From Pigmentiphaga sp. NML080357 (lineage in GTDB: Bacteria > Pseudomonadota > Gammaproteobacteria > Burkholderiales > Burkholderiaceae_B): DNA of 64,000 bases. Shown here piece after piece: positions 54,612-64,000 of this stretch. The stretch's first letter is position 1, and each line of letters opens with the position of its first letter. Below the pieces are notes generated by a model that saw only the letters and a program-made list of their open reading frames with translations, did no database searches and was not told the DNA's origin. Position numbers and translations under genes: made by a program. Location of the stretch: assembly GCF_002188465.1 (NCBI RefSeq), contig NZ_NINW01000020.1:50288-114287 (forward strand). The letters are read 5' to 3'.

Positions 54612-56291
54612 TCACGTCCCGGGCGCCGTGGTGCCGGCTTCCAGGTCCAGCAGACGCCGGGCGAGGCGCAGCAGCCGAAAGAGCTTGACCAACGCCGTGT
54701 CGCTCAAGCGCCTTGCGCCGCTGCCATGGCCTTGGCTCTGGCCGTGCAACAGGGTCGGCAGGTCGGCGGCGAGCTGCGCGCCGTCCAGGCCCGCTTCGGC
54801 GACGGGCTGACCCGTCAGGGAAGCGAGCAGCGTCAGCACCGCGCGGCCGAGCGGCGACGGGGCTTGGCCGCGGGCGCGGCACGCAAACCCGATGCCATCG
54901 GCGCGATCCTCGATGCACTCGTCCAGGCCTGCCTCCCCGGCGATCTCGCGCGCGAACTGCGCGATGTGGATGCGCAGCCGATCGGGCGTGTCCAGGCCGG
55001 CGTCGATGTACCAGACGTCGGAGATCGGATAGAGTCCGCCGGCTTGCACCGGGATGGACTGCAGCACGCTCGCCGAGAAGTCGGGCGGCAGCGCATCGCC
55101 CAACTGGTCGGCGACCATGCGCTGGATCGACTGCAGCCGTTCGGTCGTCGGTGCCGGCGAGACGATGTGCTCGCGAAGCAGATCGCTCGGTGCAGCCGCC
55201 GGGCTTCCCGTGGCCGCTTCGCCAGCCGCCGTGTCGTCGTGGCGCAAGGTGGGCTCGGACACCGCTGGGCTGGCGGGTGGAGGACCGGCCGCCGCTGCAG
55301 GCGTGGCGATGGACGATGCTGCGCCCGGGGGAGTCGGCGTGCTGGCGGTGGGCGAAGGCAACGCCGGCGGCGCCGCAGGTGGCGTCGGGTCGCTGACCAG
55401 CGCCCGGTGGCGGCTTTCCGATTCGGTCAGGTCCAGCGCCAACACGTCGTAGCCGACGCCCAGCAGCTCGGACATCTGGCCGATCAGCTCGTCCTGCACG
55501 CGCTGCGGCGCGAACTCGTCGCCCTGCGTGTCGAACTGCGCCAGCACCTCCTGAAAGAAGCTGTCAAATTCCAGCGGCAGCGTGCGGTCCTTGGCATAGT
55601 GCTCCCAGGTGCGTTTGCAGGCCGTGCGCATGACCGACAGCCGCTCGACCTGGTGGCGCCCCAGGCCGCCATAGAGCACAGTGGGAATGGCGGGCAGCAG
55701 GTAGCGCACCGCGTCGGCCATGCGGGTGATGTGTGACCGCTGGACGGGGAAGCCATCGGCCGCCAGGCGACGGGCCAGTTCCGACTGGCTCAGGGCGGCG
55801 CTGCTCTCCTGCTCGTAGAACTCTCGTGCCTTCTCGACGCCGAGCGCGCGCTCGATGAATGTGAGGCCGCCGCGCAGTTCGTTCTCCGCAAGATGCCCGG
55901 TTAGCGCGACGATTTCACCGCGCTGGGGCCATGGCCGGAACAGGCACGATATGCGGAAGAAGCGTTCTTCCTTGGTCTCCGACCAGAGTTCGCGCAGGAT
56001 CGCCAGTCGCGTGTTGCCGCCGTTGCGGATGATGTAGTGGTCCTCGCCGGGCCGGCGCGTGATGGCCGGCGCCGCGTCCAGGCCGCGCTCGCGGATGGAC
56101 GCCTTGATTTCCTCGTAAGCCGGGTTGCGCTTCATGCGCGGGTCATGGTCGTAGGGCCGCAACTGGTCCAGCGTCACGACCATGGGCGTGTCCGCGATCG
56201 GGTCGCTCAAGGCCGTAGCCGCTGGGCCGCTGCGCTCGAAGCCGGCCGCGAGCAGCTTGCCGGCCATGTCCTGCGAGGTCATGTCAGCCAT
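54612..56291 (-). CDS. parB: ParB-family ICE partition/nuclease protein (TIGR03764-like)
   Basis: A 559-residue protein with a ParB/Srx N-terminal domain (VVTLDQLRPYDHDPRMKRNPAYEEIKASIRERGLDAAPAIT, IIRNGGNTRLAIL). A helix-turn-helix follows (LSQSELARRLAADGFPVQRSHITRMADAV), then a long Pro/Ala-rich linker (about 320-400) and a C-terminal domain specific to the ICE PFGI-1 class. It is probably a partition or stability protein working with the ParA encoded two genes upstream. ATG 56291 lies inside the end of the HicA-like gene. Confidence 0.87.
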   Translation of the reverse strand: MADMTSQDMAGKLLAAGFERSGPAATALSDPIADTPMVVTLDQLRPYDHDPRMKRNPAYEEIKASIRERGLDAAPAITRRPGEDHYIIRNGGNTRLAILRELWSETKEERFFRISCLFRPWPQRGEIVALTGHLAENELRGGLTFIERALGVEKAREFYEQESSAALSQSELARRLAADGFPVQRSHITRMADAVRYLLPAIPTVLYGGLGRHQVERLSVMRTACKRTWEHYAKDRTLPLEFDSFFQEVLAQFDTQGDEFAPQRVQDELIGQMSELLGVGYDVLALDLTESESRHRALVSDPTPPAAPPALPSPTASTPTPPGAASSIATPAAAAGPPPASPAVSEPTLRHDDTAAGEAATGSPAAAPSDLLREHIVSPAPTTERLQSIQRMVADQLGDALPPDFSASVLQSIPVQAGGLYPISDVWYIDAGLDTPDRLRIHIAQFAREIAGEAGLDECIEDRADGIGFACRARGQAPSPLGRAVLTLLASLTGQPVAEAGLDGAQLAADLPTLLHGQSQGHGSGARRLSDTALVKLFRLLRLARRLLDLEAGTTAPGT

Positions 56292-56553
56292 GGCCGCACC
56301 CCTCGCAGTCCCCACGACCGCCGGCCGGCGCCATGCGGGCCTCTCGCTCGGCGCGGCGGATCTGCGCACGGGCGTTCAATTCGGCCCGGTGGTCACTCGC
56401 TGTCGAACTCGTGTAGATCGCCGCGCAGCCGGCCTTGGTGAACTTGAGGTGCCCGCCCGGCGTGCGCTTGACGTGCCAACCCTCACCGACCGCGAACTCG
56501 ATCAGGGCGCGCAGCCGCTTGTGGCCGCGGGCCAGCTCATGTGCGTTCGCCAT
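56284..56553 (-). CDS. HicA-like small protein in the position of ICEclc shi
   Basis: An 89-residue protein with the dsRBD-like HicA pattern: FAVGEGWHVKRTPGGHLKFTKAGCAAIYTSSTASDHR, in which GGHLKF replaces the usual catalytic GSHHxF. It overlaps the end of parA and the start of parB. No HicB antitoxin gene is adjacent. In ICEclc the small gene between parA and parB is shi, reported to impair growth of transfer-competent cells. This is the best candidate for that function here; the assignment is positional. Confidence 0.72.
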   Translation of the reverse strand: MANAHELARGHKRLRALIEFAVGEGWHVKRTPGGHLKFTKAGCAAIYTSSTASDHRAELNARAQIRRAEREARMAPAGGRGDCEGCGHG

Positions 56554-57412
56554 GGGGCCTCCCAGGATCAAGAGGTCGCTGCGGGCGGCCGGATACTTGA
56601 GCCAGTCGGTCCTGCCATTGCGGGAACAACTCGCTGGCGAGCGCGCGCATCGTGTCGAGCGCGGCAGGGGCGACTCTGCCGGGCGGCTGGCGGTGCTCGA
56701 CCCGATGCACTGGCAGGCCGCGCGTTGCGGCGCGTGGATACGCTTCTATGGCCGGCACGTCGGTGGCGAGCACGCGGATGCCGGCGCTGTCCTGGAACAG
56801 GTCGCGCAGGGCCTGCTGGATCAGCCGTGCGTTGGCGGACACCGGGTGGACGCGGTTGATGAGCAAGTGCAGCGGCGGCGGTTCGATACCCAGGTGCCGG
56901 TACGGCGCAATGTCTTCGAGCAACTGCATGGTGCCGCGCCGCAGCTCGCGTGCCGCGAGGATCTCCGGCGTGACGGGCGACAGCGCGAGATCGGAGGCGA
57001 GCACCGCCATCTCCAGCAGCACGGAACGCGCGCCCTGGGTGTCGATCAGCACCAGGTCGTAGAGGGGAGCAAGTGCTGGCAGCAGATGCCGCAACCGCAG
57101 GCGGCCATCCGGCGCATGCAGCAACAACGTGTTCAGCTCGCCCCGGTGGTCGTTGGACAGCACCAGGTCCAGGCCCGCGATGATCGTGCGGGACACGAGC
57201 TGGCCAAGGTCGCGCTCGTTGAAGGCCAACAGCTCATAGATGCCGCCCGGCGCGCGCTGGGTCAGTTCGTAGTAGGAGGACAAGGTGGGCTGCACGTCGA
57301 GATCGAGCAGCAGCACGCGCAGGCCCGCGTCCGCGGCGAGCCCGCCCAGGTTGGCGGCCGTCGTGGTCTTGCCGACGCCGCCCTTCGTTGAAATGATGGA
57401 CACGACCTGCAT
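56537..57412 (-). CDS. parA: ParA-family ATPase
   Basis: A 291-residue P-loop ATPase with the deviant Walker A KGGVGKTTTAANLGG (residues 10-24), Walker A' LLLDLDVQPT and switch-region LVLIDTQGA. Full length for ICE ParA/Soj proteins. The gene lies between alpA (42 bp upstream) and the HicA-like gene (16-bp overlap) and is part of the right-end regulatory operon. Confidence 0.9.
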   Translation of the reverse strand: MQVVSIISTKGGVGKTTTAANLGGLAADAGLRVLLLDLDVQPTLSSYYELTQRAPGGIYELLAFNERDLGQLVSRTIIAGLDLVLSNDHRGELNTLLLHAPDGRLRLRHLLPALAPLYDLVLIDTQGARSVLLEMAVLASDLALSPVTPEILAARELRRGTMQLLEDIAPYRHLGIEPPPLHLLINRVHPVSANARLIQQALRDLFQDSAGIRVLATDVPAIEAYPRAATRGLPVHRVEHRQPPGRVAPAALDTMRALASELFPQWQDRLAQVSGRPQRPLDPGRPHGERT

Positions 57413-57454: not shown

Positions 57455-57667
57455 TCAGGTCCGGTGGTTGAGGCGCTCGGCGATCCACTGGTCGATTTCG
57501 ATCGAATCCCAGCCGACAGCGCGCACGCCCAGGCGCAGCGCCTGAGGGAACTGGCGCTTCTTCATCAGGTTGTAGATGTGGGCGCGTTTGAAGCCGGACT
57601 TCGCTTCGACTTCATCGAGCCGCAGGATGCGGCGCTCGTTCGGCGGGAGTACAGGGGTCTGCGACAT
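57455..57667 (-). CDS. alpA: AlpA-family transcriptional regulator
   Basis: A 70-residue MerR-like excisionase/AlpA protein: ILRLDEVEAKSGFKRAHIYNLMKKRQFPQALRLGVRAVGWDSIEIDQWIAERL. It has the typical helix-turn-helix and wing (GVRAVGW). AlpA family proteins activate integrase or excision genes, and alpA heads the operon alpA-parA-shi-parB in ICEclc. I chose MSQTPV as the start; an upstream GTG would add three residues. Confidence 0.88.
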   Translation of the reverse strand: MSQTPVLPPNERRILRLDEVEAKSGFKRAHIYNLMKKRQFPQALRLGVRAVGWDSIEIDQWIAERLNHRT

Positions 57668-57740
57668 GGCGGTCACTCCTGAACGCTCGGTGGCGTTTGT
57701 TGGCGTGACCTCTATTCAATAGACCTGGCTGCGGAAAGAC

Positions 57741-57785: not shown

Positions 57786-58532
57786 TCATGCGCTTGCGCT
57801 ACGGACGTACCTCTTAGCGTTGGCGAACTTTCCGTTTAAGGTGCGCTCAGTGATGCCCATGGTGCCGCCGTAGTGGGCGACCAATGCAGAGACAAGGGCC
57901 TCCTGCGTTTTGAAGCTGGAATAGGGCACGCCTGAAGGCGACTGGCTCAGCATCAGCGTCAACATCCCTCCAATGATGTTGAGATAGGTCGTTTCCGCCC
58001 GTTCGCTGATCTCGCATTGCTTGGATGCCAACAGCACCGAGGATTGCTTGAGTAGCGTGTCGTGCTGCTCCTGCAGTTCTCGCATCTCACGTCGGGCTTG
58101 TTCAAGCGCGGCCTGAAGGGCCAGCCGCTCCACGAGGATCGCCTGTCCTGTTTCCATGGTGATGAAAGGATGCGCCATGCGTTCGCCACGGCTGAACAGA
58201 AATCCTGGCCGGTGCTCGGGATAGTGGGTGCGCATCCAGCGTTTTAGATCGACATGGCGAACAGTCAGATCCAGAGAATTGAGCAGCTTCGGATCATTGA
58301 GCGTGATCCCGTTCTTGCCGTAGGGCAGCTCTCCGTTGAGGATGCCGTCATAGATACGTTCCGAGTGCAGCCGGCACTCATTCCATCGAGGGCAGTTCAG
58401 CGACCGAGGCAGGACACGCGGTGACGCGATCGTGGCCAGGATCATCGGGAGATACCGCAGCAACCCAGCCCATCGGATGGCCGCCTCGATGGGACGATAG
58501 AACACCTTTGATGTTGAAATGTCCTTGTGCAT
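57786..58532 (-). CDS. ICE right-end hypothetical protein with coiled coil
   Basis: A 248-residue protein. The N-terminal part (MHKDISTSKVFYRPIEAAIRWAGLL) is followed by VRHVDLKRWMRTHYPEHRPGFLFSR, a coiled coil (about 130-175, LALQAALEQARREMRELQEQHDTLL) and a conserved C-terminus with TYLNIIGGMLTLML and GITERTLNGKFANAKRYV. Similar proteins occur near integrases of other elements. Function unknown, possibly DNA-binding. ATG 58532 follows GGAG; the longer in-frame upstream sequence is not protein-like. Confidence 0.7.
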   Translation of the reverse strand: MHKDISTSKVFYRPIEAAIRWAGLLRYLPMILATIASPRVLPRSLNCPRWNECRLHSERIYDGILNGELPYGKNGITLNDPKLLNSLDLTVRHVDLKRWMRTHYPEHRPGFLFSRGERMAHPFITMETGQAILVERLALQAALEQARREMRELQEQHDTLLKQSSVLLASKQCEISERAETTYLNIIGGMLTLMLSQSPSGVPYSSFKTQEALVSALVAHYGGTMGITERTLNGKFANAKRYVRSASA

Positions 58533-58982
58533 GTCTTCGTCTCCTTTCGGGTGCGCTACATCACCGGCTCCTTTCTTGCCCAAGGGCTGTTGTGTCGTTA
58601 TGGCCTGCGACGGACGCTTGAGGCGATGCCCTAAGCGAAGGCGGAGGAGGCCATTGGCGTCCGCCGCAGGTGGCCTTGTCTTGCTTGATATGCAAGAATC
58701 GATCAGTTGCCGGCCCATCGAGCGATGAGGACGCAAGCTCGATATTGGCGCTCACGGTACCAGCGTCATAGGTGGCGCAAAGCCCATCAAGACCGATTTG
58801 GTATAGTCTGATATCCAGACGGTTCAAGACCAGCGAGTTGAAGCGTTCGACGCCCCTACGTCCAGTTGGTGACTGGAAATCAGCGGTTAGTGATGCATCG
58901 CTCCACATGCTGATATATCGACAAAGTATCTGCCGCAGTACCAGTGACCCTGCCAGGTTGCCCCAGCACATAGGAGACGGAG
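58533..58982. other. 450-bp interval near the ICE right end
   Basis: Divergent interval between the coiled-coil gene (-) and the DUF305 gene (+). It contains a small inverted repeat CTTGC-TTGATAT-GCAAG (about 58680-58696) and TATAGT at about 58802. No gene is supported. Confidence 0.4.
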
Positions 58983-59483
58983 ATGGCTGAACATTCCCAT
59001 GAACATCAACATCACACATCCGGTCAGATGGGTAAGCACGGCCGACCATACGCCAAGTTCTGGGTGAACATGGTGTTGGGCCTCGTCGTCATGTACTTCG
59101 TAATGTTCAGCATGATCGACGGCGCCAGGGACTTCAGAAACAATCTCAACATGCTCTACATGGCGGTCACTATGTGGGCGCCAATGGGCATCTTCATGCT
59201 AGCGACAATGCCCGGCATGTTTCCAAACCGGCGGCTCAATCTCGTGCTGTACGGCTTGTTTGCCGTTCTCACACTCGGTTCTTTTGCCGCTACCCGTGCT
59301 CAAACCGGAATCGGCGATCGACAGTTCATCGCGTCTATGGTCCCGCACCATTCGGGAGCGATCCTCATGTGCCGCGAGGCGCAGCTCTCAGATCCGGAAC
59401 TCGTCAACCTATGCCAAGCGATTTCCGATGGCCAGCGCGCGGAGATCGAGCAGATGAACCGGATTGCTGCACGCCTTCGTTGA
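58983..59483 (+). CDS. DUF305 membrane protein
   Basis: A 166-residue protein with a His-rich N-terminus (HSHEHQHH), three membrane helices (about 28-45, 55-75, 80-97) and a C-terminal DUF305 domain carrying FIASMVPHHSGAILMCREAQLSDPELVNLC. DUF305 proteins often sit beside copper and silver resistance genes, and the motif H-H-x-G-A-x-x-M-C could bind soft metals. GGAGACGG precedes the ATG. It is the last gene before the att site. Confidence 0.82.
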   Translation: MAEHSHEHQHHTSGQMGKHGRPYAKFWVNMVLGLVVMYFVMFSMIDGARDFRNNLNMLYMAVTMWAPMGIFMLATMPGMFPNRRLNLVLYGLFAVLTLGSFAATRAQTGIGDRQFIASMVPHHSGAILMCREAQLSDPELVNLCQAISDGQRAEIEQMNRIAARLR

Positions 59484-59773
59484 GGCTGGCTGCCACTACA
59501 CTGGCGCCGCGTTGCGCTCCGGCGAAGTTAGCCGCAGCGATGTAAAGATGAGTACTTGCGGTGTTCCGATGCCGGCGGTTGTGTCCTACAGCCGTCCAGG
59601 TGCCAGGCAGTCCACGCGACACCACCCCGCGCTGCCTGCGGAGCGAGCGCAAGTCATGATCGTCGCAAGTTGGAGTTCGATAGCGAACCCGCTCAGCAGC
59701 TGGACGCATCAGGCGTAACGACGGGTGGATGGATCATCCTTGGACGCTGGTGGAAGTGGTTGGATGAACTTTG

Positions 59774-59802
59774 TTGCCGAGGGCGAAAAACAAGGCTATA
59801 AT
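59774..59802 (+). promoter_or_regulatory. strong outward promoter at the ICE right end (Pcirc-like)
   Basis: TTGCCG (59774-59779), a 17-bp spacer and a consensus TATAAT (59797-59802) point out of the ICE toward the att core 69 bp away and the integrase gene beyond it. In ICEclc a constitutive promoter at this end, Pcirc, drives intB13 only after the ends are joined. This is the same arrangement. No gene lies between it and the att core. Confidence 0.8.
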
Positions 59803-59870
59803 TGAGTTCTTCGCTGATCACCACAGTGGAGAAAGTGATTGGGAAACAGAGACTTAGCGCTCTAGTGCAT

Positions 59871-59888
59871 GACTCGTTTCCCGCTCCA
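59871..59888 (+). other. att core (3' end of tRNA-Gly(GCC))
   Basis: GACTCGTTTCCCGCTCCA differs at one position from GTCTCGTTTCCCGCTCCA, the last 18 bases of tRNA-Gly(GCC) and the known ICEclc attachment core. The sequence to its left does not fold as a tRNA, so there is no intact tRNA-Gly gene here. Left of the core is the ICE right end, right of it is the integrase end. Confidence 0.85.
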
Positions 59889-59896
59889 ATTTATGA

Positions 59897-59988
59897 TCTA
59901 CAGACTTCCACTGACGTCTGTAAGTCATTGAAAAGAGGAGCTTCGGCTCCTTTTTTCATTCCAGCGAAAGCCACGGAAGTCCACTGAC
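59897..59988. repeat. repeats flanking the att core, possible integrase arm sites
   Basis: TACAGAC...GTCTGTA forms a 7-bp inverted repeat about 12 bp right of the core. TCCACTGAC occurs within it (59907-59915) and again at 59980-59988 in the same orientation. P4-type integrases bind short arm repeats beside the core, so these are natural candidates. Confidence 0.45.
59931..59956 (+). terminator. intrinsic terminator between att core and integrase
   Basis: AGGAGC-TTCG-GCTCCT (59936-59951) followed by TTTTT, preceded by AAAAG, so it can also end minus-strand transcripts. In an integrated ICE it would follow the tRNA-Gly gene. Here it stands between the outward promoter and int and should attenuate read-through. 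Confidence 0.8.
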
Positions 59989-60112
59989 AGCCACCATTTT
60001 TGAGGCCAAAAACAAGGCCAAAGAATGCGGGTCGTGCCGGTTCCGGGTTGTTGCTGGGGTTGGATCGGGATGACAAGCAGCATCGGGCCTAAGTCCAAGA
60101 CTTAGGAGCTTG

Positions 60113-62050
60113 ATGATGACACTCTCTGATCTGACCGTGCGGCAAGCCAAGGCCGCCGAGAGAACCTACAGCATCCCCGACACCGATGGCCTCGGCCTGG
60201 TGGTCGCCCGCACCGGCGGCAAGTCGTGGCATTTGCGCTATTACTGGCTCGGCAAGCAAAAGCGCATCTCCCTGGGGAACTACCCCGAGATCGGTTTGCG
60301 CGAAGCGCGCACCTTGCGCGACGAAGCCCGGGCGCTTCTGGCAAAGGGCGTCAACCCCCATACCGATCGGAAACAGAAGCGACACGCGGTCAAGCTTGCG
60401 GCCGACTACACCTTCAAGGCCGTCTTCGATGCGTGGGTCGAGCATCGCCGCAAGGAAATCAAGGAGGGCAGGAACAGCACGCTGTCGCAGATCCTGCGGA
60501 TCTTCAACAAGGACGTGCTGCCTAGCCTCAAGCAGATGTCGATCTACGACATTCGCCGGCCCCAACTCCTGGGCGTCCTGGCGAGGATCGAGGAGCGCAA
60601 GGCGTTCACCACTGCCGAGAAGGTCCGCACCTGGCTGGGGCAGTTGTTCCGCTATGCCCTCGTCATCGTGGAGGGGCTGGAAGCCAATCCGGCCTCCGAC
60701 CTGGACGTGGTGGCCGAGCCCAAGCCCCCGGTGAACCACAACCCCTACCTGCATCTTCCGGAGCTCCCCGAGTTCCTGCACAAGCTCAGGCTCTACAACC
60801 CTCGTGGTTGGCAGACCCAACTCGGCATCCGGCTGCTGTTCCTGACCGGCGTGCGTACCGGCGAGCTGCGGCTGGCGACCCCGGACCAGTTCGATCTCGA
60901 CCGTGGCCTGTGGATCATCCCGCCGCAGATCGTCAAGCAACTCCAGGACGAGATGCGCAAGGCCGGCAAGCGCCCGCAGGACGTTCCGCCCTACATCGTG
61001 CCGTTGTCCGTGCAGGCCATCGAGATCGTGCGCTACCTGTTGGGTGTGATGAGGCCGGCTCAGGTCCATCTGCTCACGCACCGCAGCGAACTCAAGAAGC
61101 GCATCAGCGAGAACACCCTCAACGCGGCCTTGAAACGAATGGGCTACGAGGATCAACTGACCGGTCACGGCATCCGCGGAACCATCTCGACGGCGCTCAA
61201 CGAGATCGGCTATCCCAAGATTTGGGTGGACGCGCAGCTTTCGCACTCGGACCCGAACAAGGTGAGTTCGGCCTACAACCACGCCAAGTATGTTGAGCCG
61301 CGCCGCCGGATGATGCAGGACTGGGCGGATCGTCTCGATCTGCTCGAACAGGGCCAAGTGGAAGCGGCCAGCGCGCACCTCACGATCCATATCGAGGGCG
61401 TGCCGGCCATGGCAGAGGAGGACAAGCCCAACACCATCGTCGCTGCTGCTTCTGCGGCATCCGTTCCGCCTGTGGTGGCCGAACCCATCGTCGTGACGCC
61501 AAACGACGGGGGAATCACCTTCCAGCGACTGTCGCAGGTACCACCGCCCCCGACGCATGCGCCAGAGCCGGAGGTGTCAGTCATCCAGCGCGAGCGCGAG
61601 GAAATGCTGGCCATCTACGAATCGCCGAGCAGTCTGCCGGTCCCGCTGTTCGGCAAGTTGGCCGGGAAGTCCAAGGACCAGATCAACCGCGAGCTGAAGG
61701 CGGGCAAGCTGCTGTCTATCAGCTTGGGCAACCGCGGGCAACGCGTGCCCGACTGGCAGCTGGTACCCCTCAAGCACAAGCTGGCACAGGTGCTCATGAA
61801 CCAGTGCCCGCATGCGGATCCGTGGGACCTGTACCGGATGCTGACCCGCCCACATCCGGACCTGGGTGATCGCGCAGCCATCGACATCGTGACACCAGGA
61901 AATTTGGGCATGGTCGTGCGGGTCATCGCGGGCACCCAGCAGCAGCCAAACAGGCCCGGACCTGACTCGTCTGTGCAAGGTATTCCAGAGGAGACTCGCC
62001 AGCGCATTCAACGGTTGCTAAATGATGCGGCAATGCTCGAAAGTGCCTGA
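60113..62050 (+). CDS. int: P4-type tyrosine integrase (IntB13-like)
   Basis: A 645-residue site-specific recombinase. It has an N-terminal DUF4102 arm-binding domain (LTVRQAKAAERTYSIPDTDGLGLVVARTGGKSWHLRY), a SAM-like core-binding domain (about 105-190) and a catalytic domain. The catalytic domain holds Arg in LTGVRTGELRLATPDQF, H-x-x-R in GHGIRGTISTALNEIG and the Tyr nucleophile in KVSSAYNHAKYVEPRR. A C-terminal extension of about 220 residues is characteristic of the ICEclc integrase group. AGGAG (60104-60108) precedes ATG 60113 and ATG 60116; the second has better spacing. Confidence 0.93.
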   Translation: MMTLSDLTVRQAKAAERTYSIPDTDGLGLVVARTGGKSWHLRYYWLGKQKRISLGNYPEIGLREARTLRDEARALLAKGVNPHTDRKQKRHAVKLAADYTFKAVFDAWVEHRRKEIKEGRNSTLSQILRIFNKDVLPSLKQMSIYDIRRPQLLGVLARIEERKAFTTAEKVRTWLGQLFRYALVIVEGLEANPASDLDVVAEPKPPVNHNPYLHLPELPEFLHKLRLYNPRGWQTQLGIRLLFLTGVRTGELRLATPDQFDLDRGLWIIPPQIVKQLQDEMRKAGKRPQDVPPYIVPLSVQAIEIVRYLLGVMRPAQVHLLTHRSELKKRISENTLNAALKRMGYEDQLTGHGIRGTISTALNEIGYPKIWVDAQLSHSDPNKVSSAYNHAKYVEPRRRMMQDWADRLDLLEQGQVEAASAHLTIHIEGVPAMAEEDKPNTIVAAASAASVPPVVAEPIVVTPNDGGITFQRLSQVPPPPTHAPEPEVSVIQREREEMLAIYESPSSLPVPLFGKLAGKSKDQINRELKAGKLLSISLGNRGQRVPDWQLVPLKHKLAQVLMNQCPHADPWDLYRMLTRPHPDLGDRAAIDIVTPGNLGMVVRVIAGTQQQPNRPGPDSSVQGIPEETRQRIQRLLNDAAMLESA

Positions 62051-62810: not shown

Positions 62811-63878
62811 TTAGCGCGGCTTACGCATCAGCAGATAGGCAGCCGGAATCACGAACAGCGACAGCAACGGTGCGGTCACCATCCCGCCGAGCATCGGAGC
62901 TGCTATGCGGCTCATGACTTCAGAGCCCGTGCCGCTGCTCCAAACAATGGGTACCAGGCCCGCCAGGATGACCGCAACGGTCATCGCTTTTGGGCGCACG
63001 CGCAGCACCGCCCCTTCCCGGATCGCATCTAGCAGTTCTTCTCGCGTTGGGTTGCGCCCATCGGGGCAACGTTCCGCCAAGGCCTGCTTCAAATAGATGA
63101 GCATCACCACGCCGAACTCCGCCGCCACACCTGCCAGCGCAATGAATCCCACGCCGGTGGCGATGGACAGGTTGTAATTCAGCAGGTACAGGAACCAGAT
63201 GCCCCCCGTGAGCGCGAAGGGCAAGGTCGCCATGATCAAGCCCGCTTCGTCCACACGCGCGAAGGTCAGGTACAACAGAACGAAGATGATCAACAGGGTG
63301 GCAGGCACCACAACCTTCAGGCGTGCATTGGCCCGCTCCATGTATTCGAACTGCCCGGAGTAGGTGATGCTCACACCCGGCTCCAGCTTGACCTGCTGCC
63401 CGATGGCATCGCGCAGTTCGTTGGCCACCGAGGCTAGATCACGGCCGCGCACATCGACATAGACCCAACCGGAGGGCCGTGCGTTCTCGCTCTTGAGCAT
63501 GGGCGGTCCATCGGTGATCGCGATGCGTGCCACGGTCCCCAACGTGATCTGCTGACCCATCGGCGTGAAGATGGGTAGTTCTGCCAGCCGTTGTGGTGAA
63601 TCACGCCATTCTCGCGCGTAGCGCAGATTGATCGGAAAGCGGGCAAGCCCCTCGACCGTTTCCGAGACGTTTTCGCCACCCACCGCGCCGGCGATGACCG
63701 CCTGGACATCGGCGATGTTCAGGCCGTAGCGACCGGCGGCTACGCGGTCGATCTGAACATCCACGTAGCGCCCGCCCGTCAAGCGCTCCGCGAGTGACGA
63801 CGTCACGCCGGGAATGCCCTTGGCGACCTGCTCGACCTCTGCAGCGATGCGATCGATCACGCCCAGGTCGTTGGGTAA
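62811..63878 (-). pseudogene. CusA/CzcA-type RND metal efflux pump, 3' part
   Basis: About 355 residues of the C-terminal third of a heavy-metal RND pump (normally about 1,050 residues). It contains [25 protein letters not shown] and [20 protein letters not shown] (periplasmic docking region). Membrane helices include [39 protein letters not shown] and [12 protein letters not shown]. The gene is cut at about 63872-63878 by the end of an insertion sequence; the 5' part may continue beyond the IS, outside the window. Cu(I)/Ag(I) export (CusA-like) is more likely than Zn/Co/Cd, by the [13 protein letters not shown] pattern. Confidence 0.82.
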
Positions 63879-64000
63879 TCCCCCCATTTTTAGCGTTTGC
63901 CAGAAGTAGGAACGCTATGCGGCCATGGCGAGCCGCTGTTTCGGGGTAAATCCGCCCAGGGCCATGTTCGGGCGCTCGTGATTGTAGGACCACATCCACT
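63879..64000 (-). mobile_element. IS3-family insertion sequence, terminal part
   Basis: The minus strand encodes the end of an IS3-family transposase (WMWSYNHERPNMALGGFTPKQRLAMAA, stop at 63915-63917), the usual C-terminus of the integrase-core OrfB. About 37 bp of IS end follow (containing CTAAAAATGGGGGG) before the pump gene resumes. The rest of the element lies beyond the window. Confidence 0.78.

What the first reader, a model, noticed from the sequence alone, without database searches (positions are those of the whole stretch)
59774..60118. ICE right end joined to an integrase end through att, with no tRNA gene: circular form or tandem ICEs
Seen: the core genes run alpA, coiled-coil gene, DUF305 gene, outward promoter, then GACTCGTTTCCCGCTCCA, then a terminator hairpin and an IntB13-like integrase reading away. 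The 18-mer matches the 3' end of tRNA-Gly(GCC) at 17 of 18 positions, and the bases to its left are not a tRNA. Known: when ICEclc-type elements integrate, int lies beside the intact tRNA gene at one end, and the parA/alpA end lies at the other. Inference: this junction is an attP of an excised circle, or the inner att of two ICEs in tandem. The efflux-pump DNA right of int may belong to a second, different element.
Basis: partly seen in the sequence, partly recalled or inferred. Interest (0 to 1): 0.85.

Follow-up and report, generated by a model that had tools for sequence, protein, structure and literature searches.

The report
Mobile element caught as excised circle
In this draft bacterial genome the two ends of a mobile DNA element, estimated at 115,000 bases, are joined to each other, and the chromosomal site where most of its relatives sit is present without it, so the element had likely popped out as a free circle in at least part of the sequenced culture, an ordinary step in the life of such elements.

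Summary
At window 59871-59888 an 18-bp core identical to the 3' end of the host's own tRNA-Gly(GCC) joins the parA/alpA end of an ICEclc-type element to its integrase end, with no tRNA gene. In the own genome (59 contigs) the core occurs at three places: this junction, and tRNA-Gly at the end of C44 and the start of C31, which share exactly 127 bp. C44+C31 read clpB, tRNA-Gly, chromosome: an empty site (attB). The contig holding the window (C10) appears to close on itself: its ends enter and leave one insertion sequence with a matching 4-bp duplication, and they carry the two parts of one cusA gene. The efflux DNA right of int is therefore most likely the same element. A second ICE of this family in the same assembly is laid out integrated (attL on C4, attR on C18), which argues against a general assembly fault. 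C44 stops at the exact base where attB and attL part, so some cells probably still held the element integrated. An identical tandem array alone does not fit, because it leaves no empty site. Best reading: attP of an excised circle. Circular and tandem ICEs of this kind are known; this is a new member.

The parts
54612..56369 (-). ParB of the PFGI-1 ICE type
   Evidence: TIGR03764 above cut-off
56537..57412 (-). ParA-type ATPase near the right end of the ICE
   Evidence: AAA_31 and ParA-type hits
57455..57676 (-). AlpA-family regulator
   Evidence: PF05930 Phage_AlpA, 78.7 bits, cut-off 21; no NCBIfam hit
57786..58736 (-). Coiled-coil gene; by position probably a BisR counterpart (inferred)
   Evidence: No family hit; the sister ICE has a 48% identical relative in a 253-aa ORF upstream of its parA; BisR of ICEclc is 251 aa with no Pfam domain (PMC7423338, passages); not compared with BisR itself
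58983..59483 (+). DUF305 protein, last gene before the right end
   Evidence: PF03713
59774..59802 (+). Outward right-end promoter (counterpart of Pcirc of ICEclc)
   Evidence: TTGCCG-17-TATAAT; by eye a similar -35/-10 layout stands in most right ends printed; activity not tested
59871..59888 (+). attP core, identical to the 3' end of the host tRNA-Gly(GCC)
59900..59988 (+). Repeats ACAGACTTCCACTGAC / ACGGAAGTCCACTGAC, with imperfect inverted partners at 59743-59764: candidate integrase arm sites
   Evidence: role inferred
59929..59958 (+). Terminator-like hairpin between the core and int
   Evidence: 92% complementary arms; stays folded in the predicted circle transcript
60113..62050 (+). 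Tyrosine integrase of the ICEclc/PAGI-2 kind, 645 aa
   Evidence: domains; 80 closest relatives fetched at 76-100% identity; the family label ICEclc/PAGI-2 for the integrase is recalled
62811..63873 (-). C-terminal third of cusA, cut by an insertion sequence (the open frame runs 14 bases on into it)
   Evidence: TIGR00914 profile positions 692-1037; the N-terminal part, 1-692, lies at the left end of C10
63874..64000 (.). First 127 bases of the insertion sequence through which C10 would close on itself
   Evidence: shared with C14 and C24; GTTG on both flanks of the C10 ends

Best explanation
The junction joins the right end of an ICEclc-type integrative and conjugative element to an integrase end through an 18-bp core, and it is most likely the attP site of the excised circular form of that element, an estimated 115 kb around, sequenced beside chromosomes whose tRNA-Gly(GCC) site is empty. 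Shown: one right end and one integrase end of this kind in the assembly, joined; the tRNA-Gly followed by chromosome; cusA split across the two ends of the contig. Inferred: that the contig closes through the insertion sequence; that the integrase recombined attL and attR to make attP and attB; that some cells still held the element integrated, since contig C44 stops at the exact base where attB and attL part. In the circle the outward promoter at 59774-59802 would lie upstream of int and would drive its expression for reintegration, across the hairpin at 59929-59958, as reported for ICEclc and ICEKp1.
For: attP contiguous, no tRNA. Core at 3 places in the own genome with up to 2 mismatches; the other two are one tRNA-Gly(GCC) locus, shared by C44 (end) and C31 (start) over exactly 127 bp. 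C44 is clpB plus tRNA-Gly; clpB is found in 10 of 10 congeners and stands directly beside a tRNA-Gly match in 8 of 10 (not in G005 and G006, about 30 kb away). C31 has long matches from about base 2545 in 6 of 10 congeners, in G008 on the same contig and strand as clpB and tRNA-Gly. Of 268 genomes of the family only this one matches the junction over its whole length. In 72 of 80 relatives of int the core is the end of an intact tRNA-Gly; 3 of 80 are cut too short, 5 of 80 have no tRNA. C10 would close through the IS: split cusA and GTTG on both flanks, with GCTG likewise pairing C24 and C16. Graph model at K=127: attB with some attL gives the observed ends of C44 and C31. Sister ICE laid out integrated in the same assembly.
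Against: No reads, coverage or copy number could be seen, so the share of excised molecules is unknown. The IS has three entries and three exits; pairing C10 with itself rests on cusA and the 4-bp match. In the model, any attL beside attP also breaks C10 about 109 bp past the core, and all four junctions would start C31 at the core; neither is seen, so the assembler would have had to bridge them. attL and attR are not in the contigs. C15 and C44 also end in a 127-bp overlap with no visible alternative, so a break alone proves little. Tandem-bearing cells mixed with element-free cells would give the same graph.
Confidence: 0.8

Rival explanations
1. Two or more identical copies of the ICE sit in tandem in the tRNA-Gly site, and the junction is their inner att; the empty site comes from cells that lost the array.
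For: Tandem amplification of the clc element is in print (title seen in reference lists). Tandem accretion of different ICEs is seen in a relative: a contig of Eoetvoesiella caeni with two right-end/core/int junctions 88.7 kb apart. Tandem plus empty cells gives the same graph as the four-junction mixture.
Against: Alone it leaves no attB, yet tRNA-Gly followed by chromosome is in C31; alone it would carry C44 on into int and start C31 in the ICE right end, which is not seen. It needs a second kind of cell to explain the data.
Confidence: 0.13
2. The junction is an assembly join made by a graph assembler between the two ends of an integrated ICE, with no such molecule in the cells.
For: The assembly is fragmented and contig ends overlap by 126-127 bp, so it looks like a k-mer graph product. 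The contigs do not show attL or attR.
Against: The 18-bp shared core is shorter than the 127-bp overlap, so a k-mer assembler needs reads across the junction; integrated-only input gives no such contig in the model. The sister ICE was laid out integrated in the same assembly. The reciprocal product attB is also present.
Confidence: 0.05
3. Two different ICEs are adjacent, the one right of int (with the efflux pump) being a second element.
For: Adjacent different ICEs occur in E. caeni and in Bordetella petrii (PMC2717098, passages).
Against: The two parts of cusA lie at the two ends of the same contig; only one int of this kind is in the genome, the next being 64% identical on C4; in 7 other genomes both ends lie on one contig at the spacing of one element.
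Confidence: 0.02

Closest known systems
ICEclc of Pseudomonas knackmussii B13 (excised form, Pcirc promoter, IntB13)
   Different: Copper/silver cargo here and another host genus; excision, promoter activity and transfer were not tested here, and the ICEclc sequence itself was not compared
ICEbph-sal of P. putida KF715 (pKF715A)
   Same: ICE with a tRNA-Gly core found by genome sequencing as an extrachromosomal circle with attP beside int, as well as integrated (PMC6563109, passages)
   Different: 483 kb and tRNA-Gly(CCC); there both forms were backed by Southern blot, here by contigs only
State-dependent int promoter switch of ICEKp1 and ICEclc
   Same: Right-end promoter and terminator-like stem-loops between att and int (PMC13023037, outline and the whole Results section)
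   Different: Here read from sequence only; whether the leader relieves the terminator was not tested at the bench
Adjacent clc-like islands GI1-GI3 of Bordetella petrii
   Same: Related integrases and att sites, circular intermediates found by PCR (PMC2717098, passages)
   Different: Different islands in a row in a chromosome; here one element joined to itself

Membership tests
ICEclc/PFGI-1-type ICE | Tyrosine integrase with arm-binding domain at one end | tested here: met
   identity to IntB13 itself not computed
ICEclc/PFGI-1-type ICE | 18-bp core equal to the 3' end of a tRNA-Gly gene of the host | tested here: met
   18 of 18
ICEclc/PFGI-1-type ICE | MobH/TraI relaxase, TraD, TraC-type ATPase and TIGR03749/TIGR03752 genes | tested here: met
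   above cut-off
ICEclc/PFGI-1-type ICE | ParB, STY4528, PFL_4669 and topoisomerase III genes toward the non-int end, with parA and alpA | tested here: met
ICEclc/PFGI-1-type ICE | Self-transfer by conjugation | not testable with these tools
   needs mating
Excised circular ICE | attP joins both ends without a tRNA gene | tested here: met
Excised circular ICE | Reciprocal empty attB in the same genome | tested here: met
Excised circular ICE | The rest of the element closes into one circle | tested here: inconclusive
   closure through the IS inferred from split cusA and a 4-bp match; the IS interior is not in C10
Excised circular ICE | Copy number or read support | not testable with these tools
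   no reads or coverage held
Identical tandem ICE array | Both chromosomal sides join ICE ends (attL, attR) and no attB | tested here: not met
   C31 starts with the tRNA and runs into chromosome; a tandem mixed with empty cells is not excluded
Right-end promoter switch (Pcirc/P3'end) | Promoter active and reading into int in the circle | not testable with these tools
   only the motif was found

The most novel reading that the evidence does not exclude
In this strain one ICEclc-family element lives chiefly as a free, self-replicating circle of about 115 kb while its sister ICE in the same cells stays locked in tRNA-Gly(CCC), so the strain is a natural two-element test of what holds an ICE in the chromosome and of whether their excision switches are insulated from each other.
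Probability: 0.3. Interest if true: 0.58.

Novelty: new member of a known kind. Interest (0 to 1): 0.4.

Why it matters
Excised forms of such elements have been shown by PCR or blots (PMC8704644, PMC2717098, PMC6563109: passages). Here a draft assembly holds both the joined ends and the empty site, with a related ICE laid out integrated in the same genome as a control. If the circle is the main form, the strain would be a ready system for asking how an ICE with partition and replication genes persists like a plasmid, and how two related ICEs are switched apart.

Tried and rejected
A circle-only reading frame as an antiterminator. A frame opens at GTG 59835, crosses the core and the hairpin, and ends at 59987. 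In left ends this phase is open through the hairpin in 48 of 50 distinct sequences, the other two phases in 1 and 0. The two misses are L067 (stop before the stem) and L019, whose contig starts near the core so that its register is wrong; L019 is also the 1 in the other phase. These sequences are closely related, so the count is weak. Of 15 right ends printed, 11 are distinct left of the core, and by my reading 6 of 11 have a start codon at that place (GTA or none in 5). By eye, variation does not gather at third codon positions. Not adopted.

A leader that unfolds the hairpin: the predicted fold of the circle transcript keeps it.

Class-wide search for more right ends: 369 genomes, 15 with a match, one of them the own genome; the other 14 match only short pieces.

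Other matches that reach or cross the core from the right-end side were fetched from 12 genomes and read, not all of the matching genomes. G004, G007, G016, G052, G053, G121, G130 and G173 show no int in the stretch fetched right of the right end (for G173 no core with up to 3 mismatches was found; for G007 the int lies on its contig C3). G226 and G230 have a tRNA-Gly with an int remnant. G120 has a right-end-like sequence, a core with 2 mismatches and int fragments (41-55% identity) without tRNA: a degenerate joined case. G133 (E. caeni) has two full joined cases.

Papers: the search for Pigmentiphaga together with 'integrative and conjugative' gave 0 papers. I claim no absence from print beyond that search.

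I also corrected the clpB/tRNA count, the C24/C16 duplication and the IS start, added the model's failed prediction for C10, and lowered the main confidence from 0.82 to 0.80.

Full report
What was checked. The core 18-mer lies at 59871-59888, is unique in the window with up to 3 mismatches, and no tRNA gene is found in the window. The genes named are there: ParA, DUF305 and the integrase, AlpA, and a coiled-coil ORF without a family hit. There is a sigma-70-like outward promoter at 59774-59802 and a hairpin between core and int.

Where the other copies of the core are. The window is bases 50288-114287 of contig C10 (114,287 bp) in a genome of 5,734,860 bases in 59 contigs. The core, with up to 2 mismatches, occurs at three places: C10, C31:110-127 and C44:4357-4374. 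The last two are each the end of a tRNA-Gly(GCC), and the last 127 bp of C44 equal the first 127 bp of C31, so I take them as one locus. Other contig ends share 126 or 127 bp too, as in a k-mer graph assembly; the assembler is not known to me.

Is that locus the empty site? C44 carries clpB and tRNA-Gly. In 10 congeners clpB is found in 10 of 10 and stands directly beside a tRNA-Gly match in 8 of 10; in G005 and G006 that match is about 30 kb away. C31 has tRNA-Cys at 2266 and long matches from about 2545 on in 6 of 10 congeners (G001, G002, G004, G007, G008, G009). In G008 these lie on the same contig and strand as clpB and tRNA-Gly, about 32 kb further on. Bases 128 to about 2260 of C31 show only scattered weak matches, so the site is empty of this ICE but not shown to be pristine.

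Is int usually beside a tRNA? One search returned the best 80 of 386 loci with a relative of int. Of the 80, 72 have tRNA-Gly ending at the core, 3 have too little sequence, and 5 have no tRNA. Of the 5, one (L034, Eoetvoesiella caeni) has an ICE right end with ParA and ParB in front of the core; the other 4 show no such end.

Is the junction seen elsewhere? Of 268 genomes of the family, 75 match some of the junction region and only the own genome matches all 585 bases. In 7 genomes (G004, G028, G031, G045, G051, G089, G090) left-end and right-end matches of 87% identity or more lie on one contig in the expected order, 89 to 160 kb apart; G052 and G173 do so with more divergent ends, 77-83 kb apart. 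That each pair bounds one integrated element is inferred. G120 has a degenerate joined case.

Does C10 close? Its last 127 bases (window 63874-64000) are the start of an insertion sequence shared with C14 and C24; its left end comes out of one shared with C30 and C16. Flanks: GTTG before and after for C10, GCTG for C24 and C16, no such match for C14 and C30. Cus permease positions 692-1037 lie at the right end and 1-692 at the left end, on the same strand. So C10 right, IS, C10 left is the natural pairing, and the circle would be about 115.2 kb, taking the IS length from an 88% relative on C56. The IS interior of this copy was not read.

A control in the same genome. A second relaxase of the PFGI-1 class and a second integrase (64% identity) lie on C4. 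That integrase stands beside an intact tRNA-Gly(CCC). Its core, searched with up to 1 mismatch, has three exact places: C4, C18 and a tRNA-Gly(TCC) on C57. The C18 copy has no tRNA, has the second ParA (83%) on its contig on the expected side, about 11 kb away, and is followed by 1.8 kb read without int. So the sister ICE is laid out integrated. That C4 and C18 bound one element is inferred; the contigs between were not traced.

What the contig ends say. A small graph model (K=127) was run on the four possible junctions. Excised-only input would merge C44 and C31; integrated-only input would make no attP or attB; an identical tandem alone would carry C44 into int. The observed ends of C44 and C31 (C44 stops at the core end, C31 starts with the shared 127 bp and runs on) are those of attB and attP plus some attL. 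That same input would also break C10 about 109 bp past the core, and all four junctions would start C31 at the core; neither is seen, so some bridging by the assembler must be assumed. C15 and C44 also overlap by 127 bp with no visible alternative, so a break by itself proves little; its exact place is the telling point.

How it would work. Established knowledge: the integrase recombines attL and attR into attP and attB. In ICEclc an outward promoter (Pcirc) is listed as the promoter of intB13 and described as outward facing and constitutive. In ICEKp1, and by reporter tests in ICEclc, a right-end promoter drives int in the excised state, and stem-loops before int act as a potential terminator, which a 15-bp leader piece of ICEKp1 is suggested to relieve (PMC13023037, Results). 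The anatomy here is the same: promoter, core, hairpin, int. Activity is inferred. I tested two ideas for how the hairpin might be passed and adopted neither (see Tried and rejected).

Verdict. Most likely an excised ICE circle sequenced together with its empty site, with some integrated copies. Whether the circle is the main form cannot be told without reads. A circular form of a related ICE has been found by sequencing before (ICEbph-sal KF715), so this is a new member of a known kind.

Noticed in passing
G000 C4:108814-110881 (L154) and C18:47774-47791 (L162): A second ICEclc-family element in the same genome, laid out integrated at tRNA-Gly(CCC), with a right-end promoter-like sequence (TTGCCG-17-CATAAT, by eye) before its core.
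   Followed up: partly
L028 and L099: In Tistrella mobilis an identical int end lies on the chromosome record and a 99.6% identical right end on plasmid pTM3; both junctions share CTCAGATCC and neither has a tRNA: a secondary site whose two halves are now on different replicons, or a misassembly.
   Followed up: partly
L117 and L118 (G133:C10): Eoetvoesiella caeni carries two right-end/core/int junctions 88.7 kb apart on one contig: different ICEs in tandem.
   Followed up: partly
window 59835-59987: A reading frame that exists only in the joined form, from GTG through the core and the terminator-like hairpin; open in most left ends, but its start codon is not conserved.
   Followed up: yes
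C10:1-16200 (L007): Copper/silver cargo: cusA (split), a CusB-like adaptor, copD, a copper P-type ATPase and a CopA-type multicopper oxidase.
   Followed up: no
L128 (G230) and L123 (G226): Stretches of 2.7-2.9 kb between two cores with only a short match to int beside tRNA-Gly: probably decayed ICEs.
   Followed up: no
C14 and C30 ends (L134, L132): The third copy of the insertion sequence shows no target duplication between its flanks, which hints at a rearrangement.
   Followed up: no
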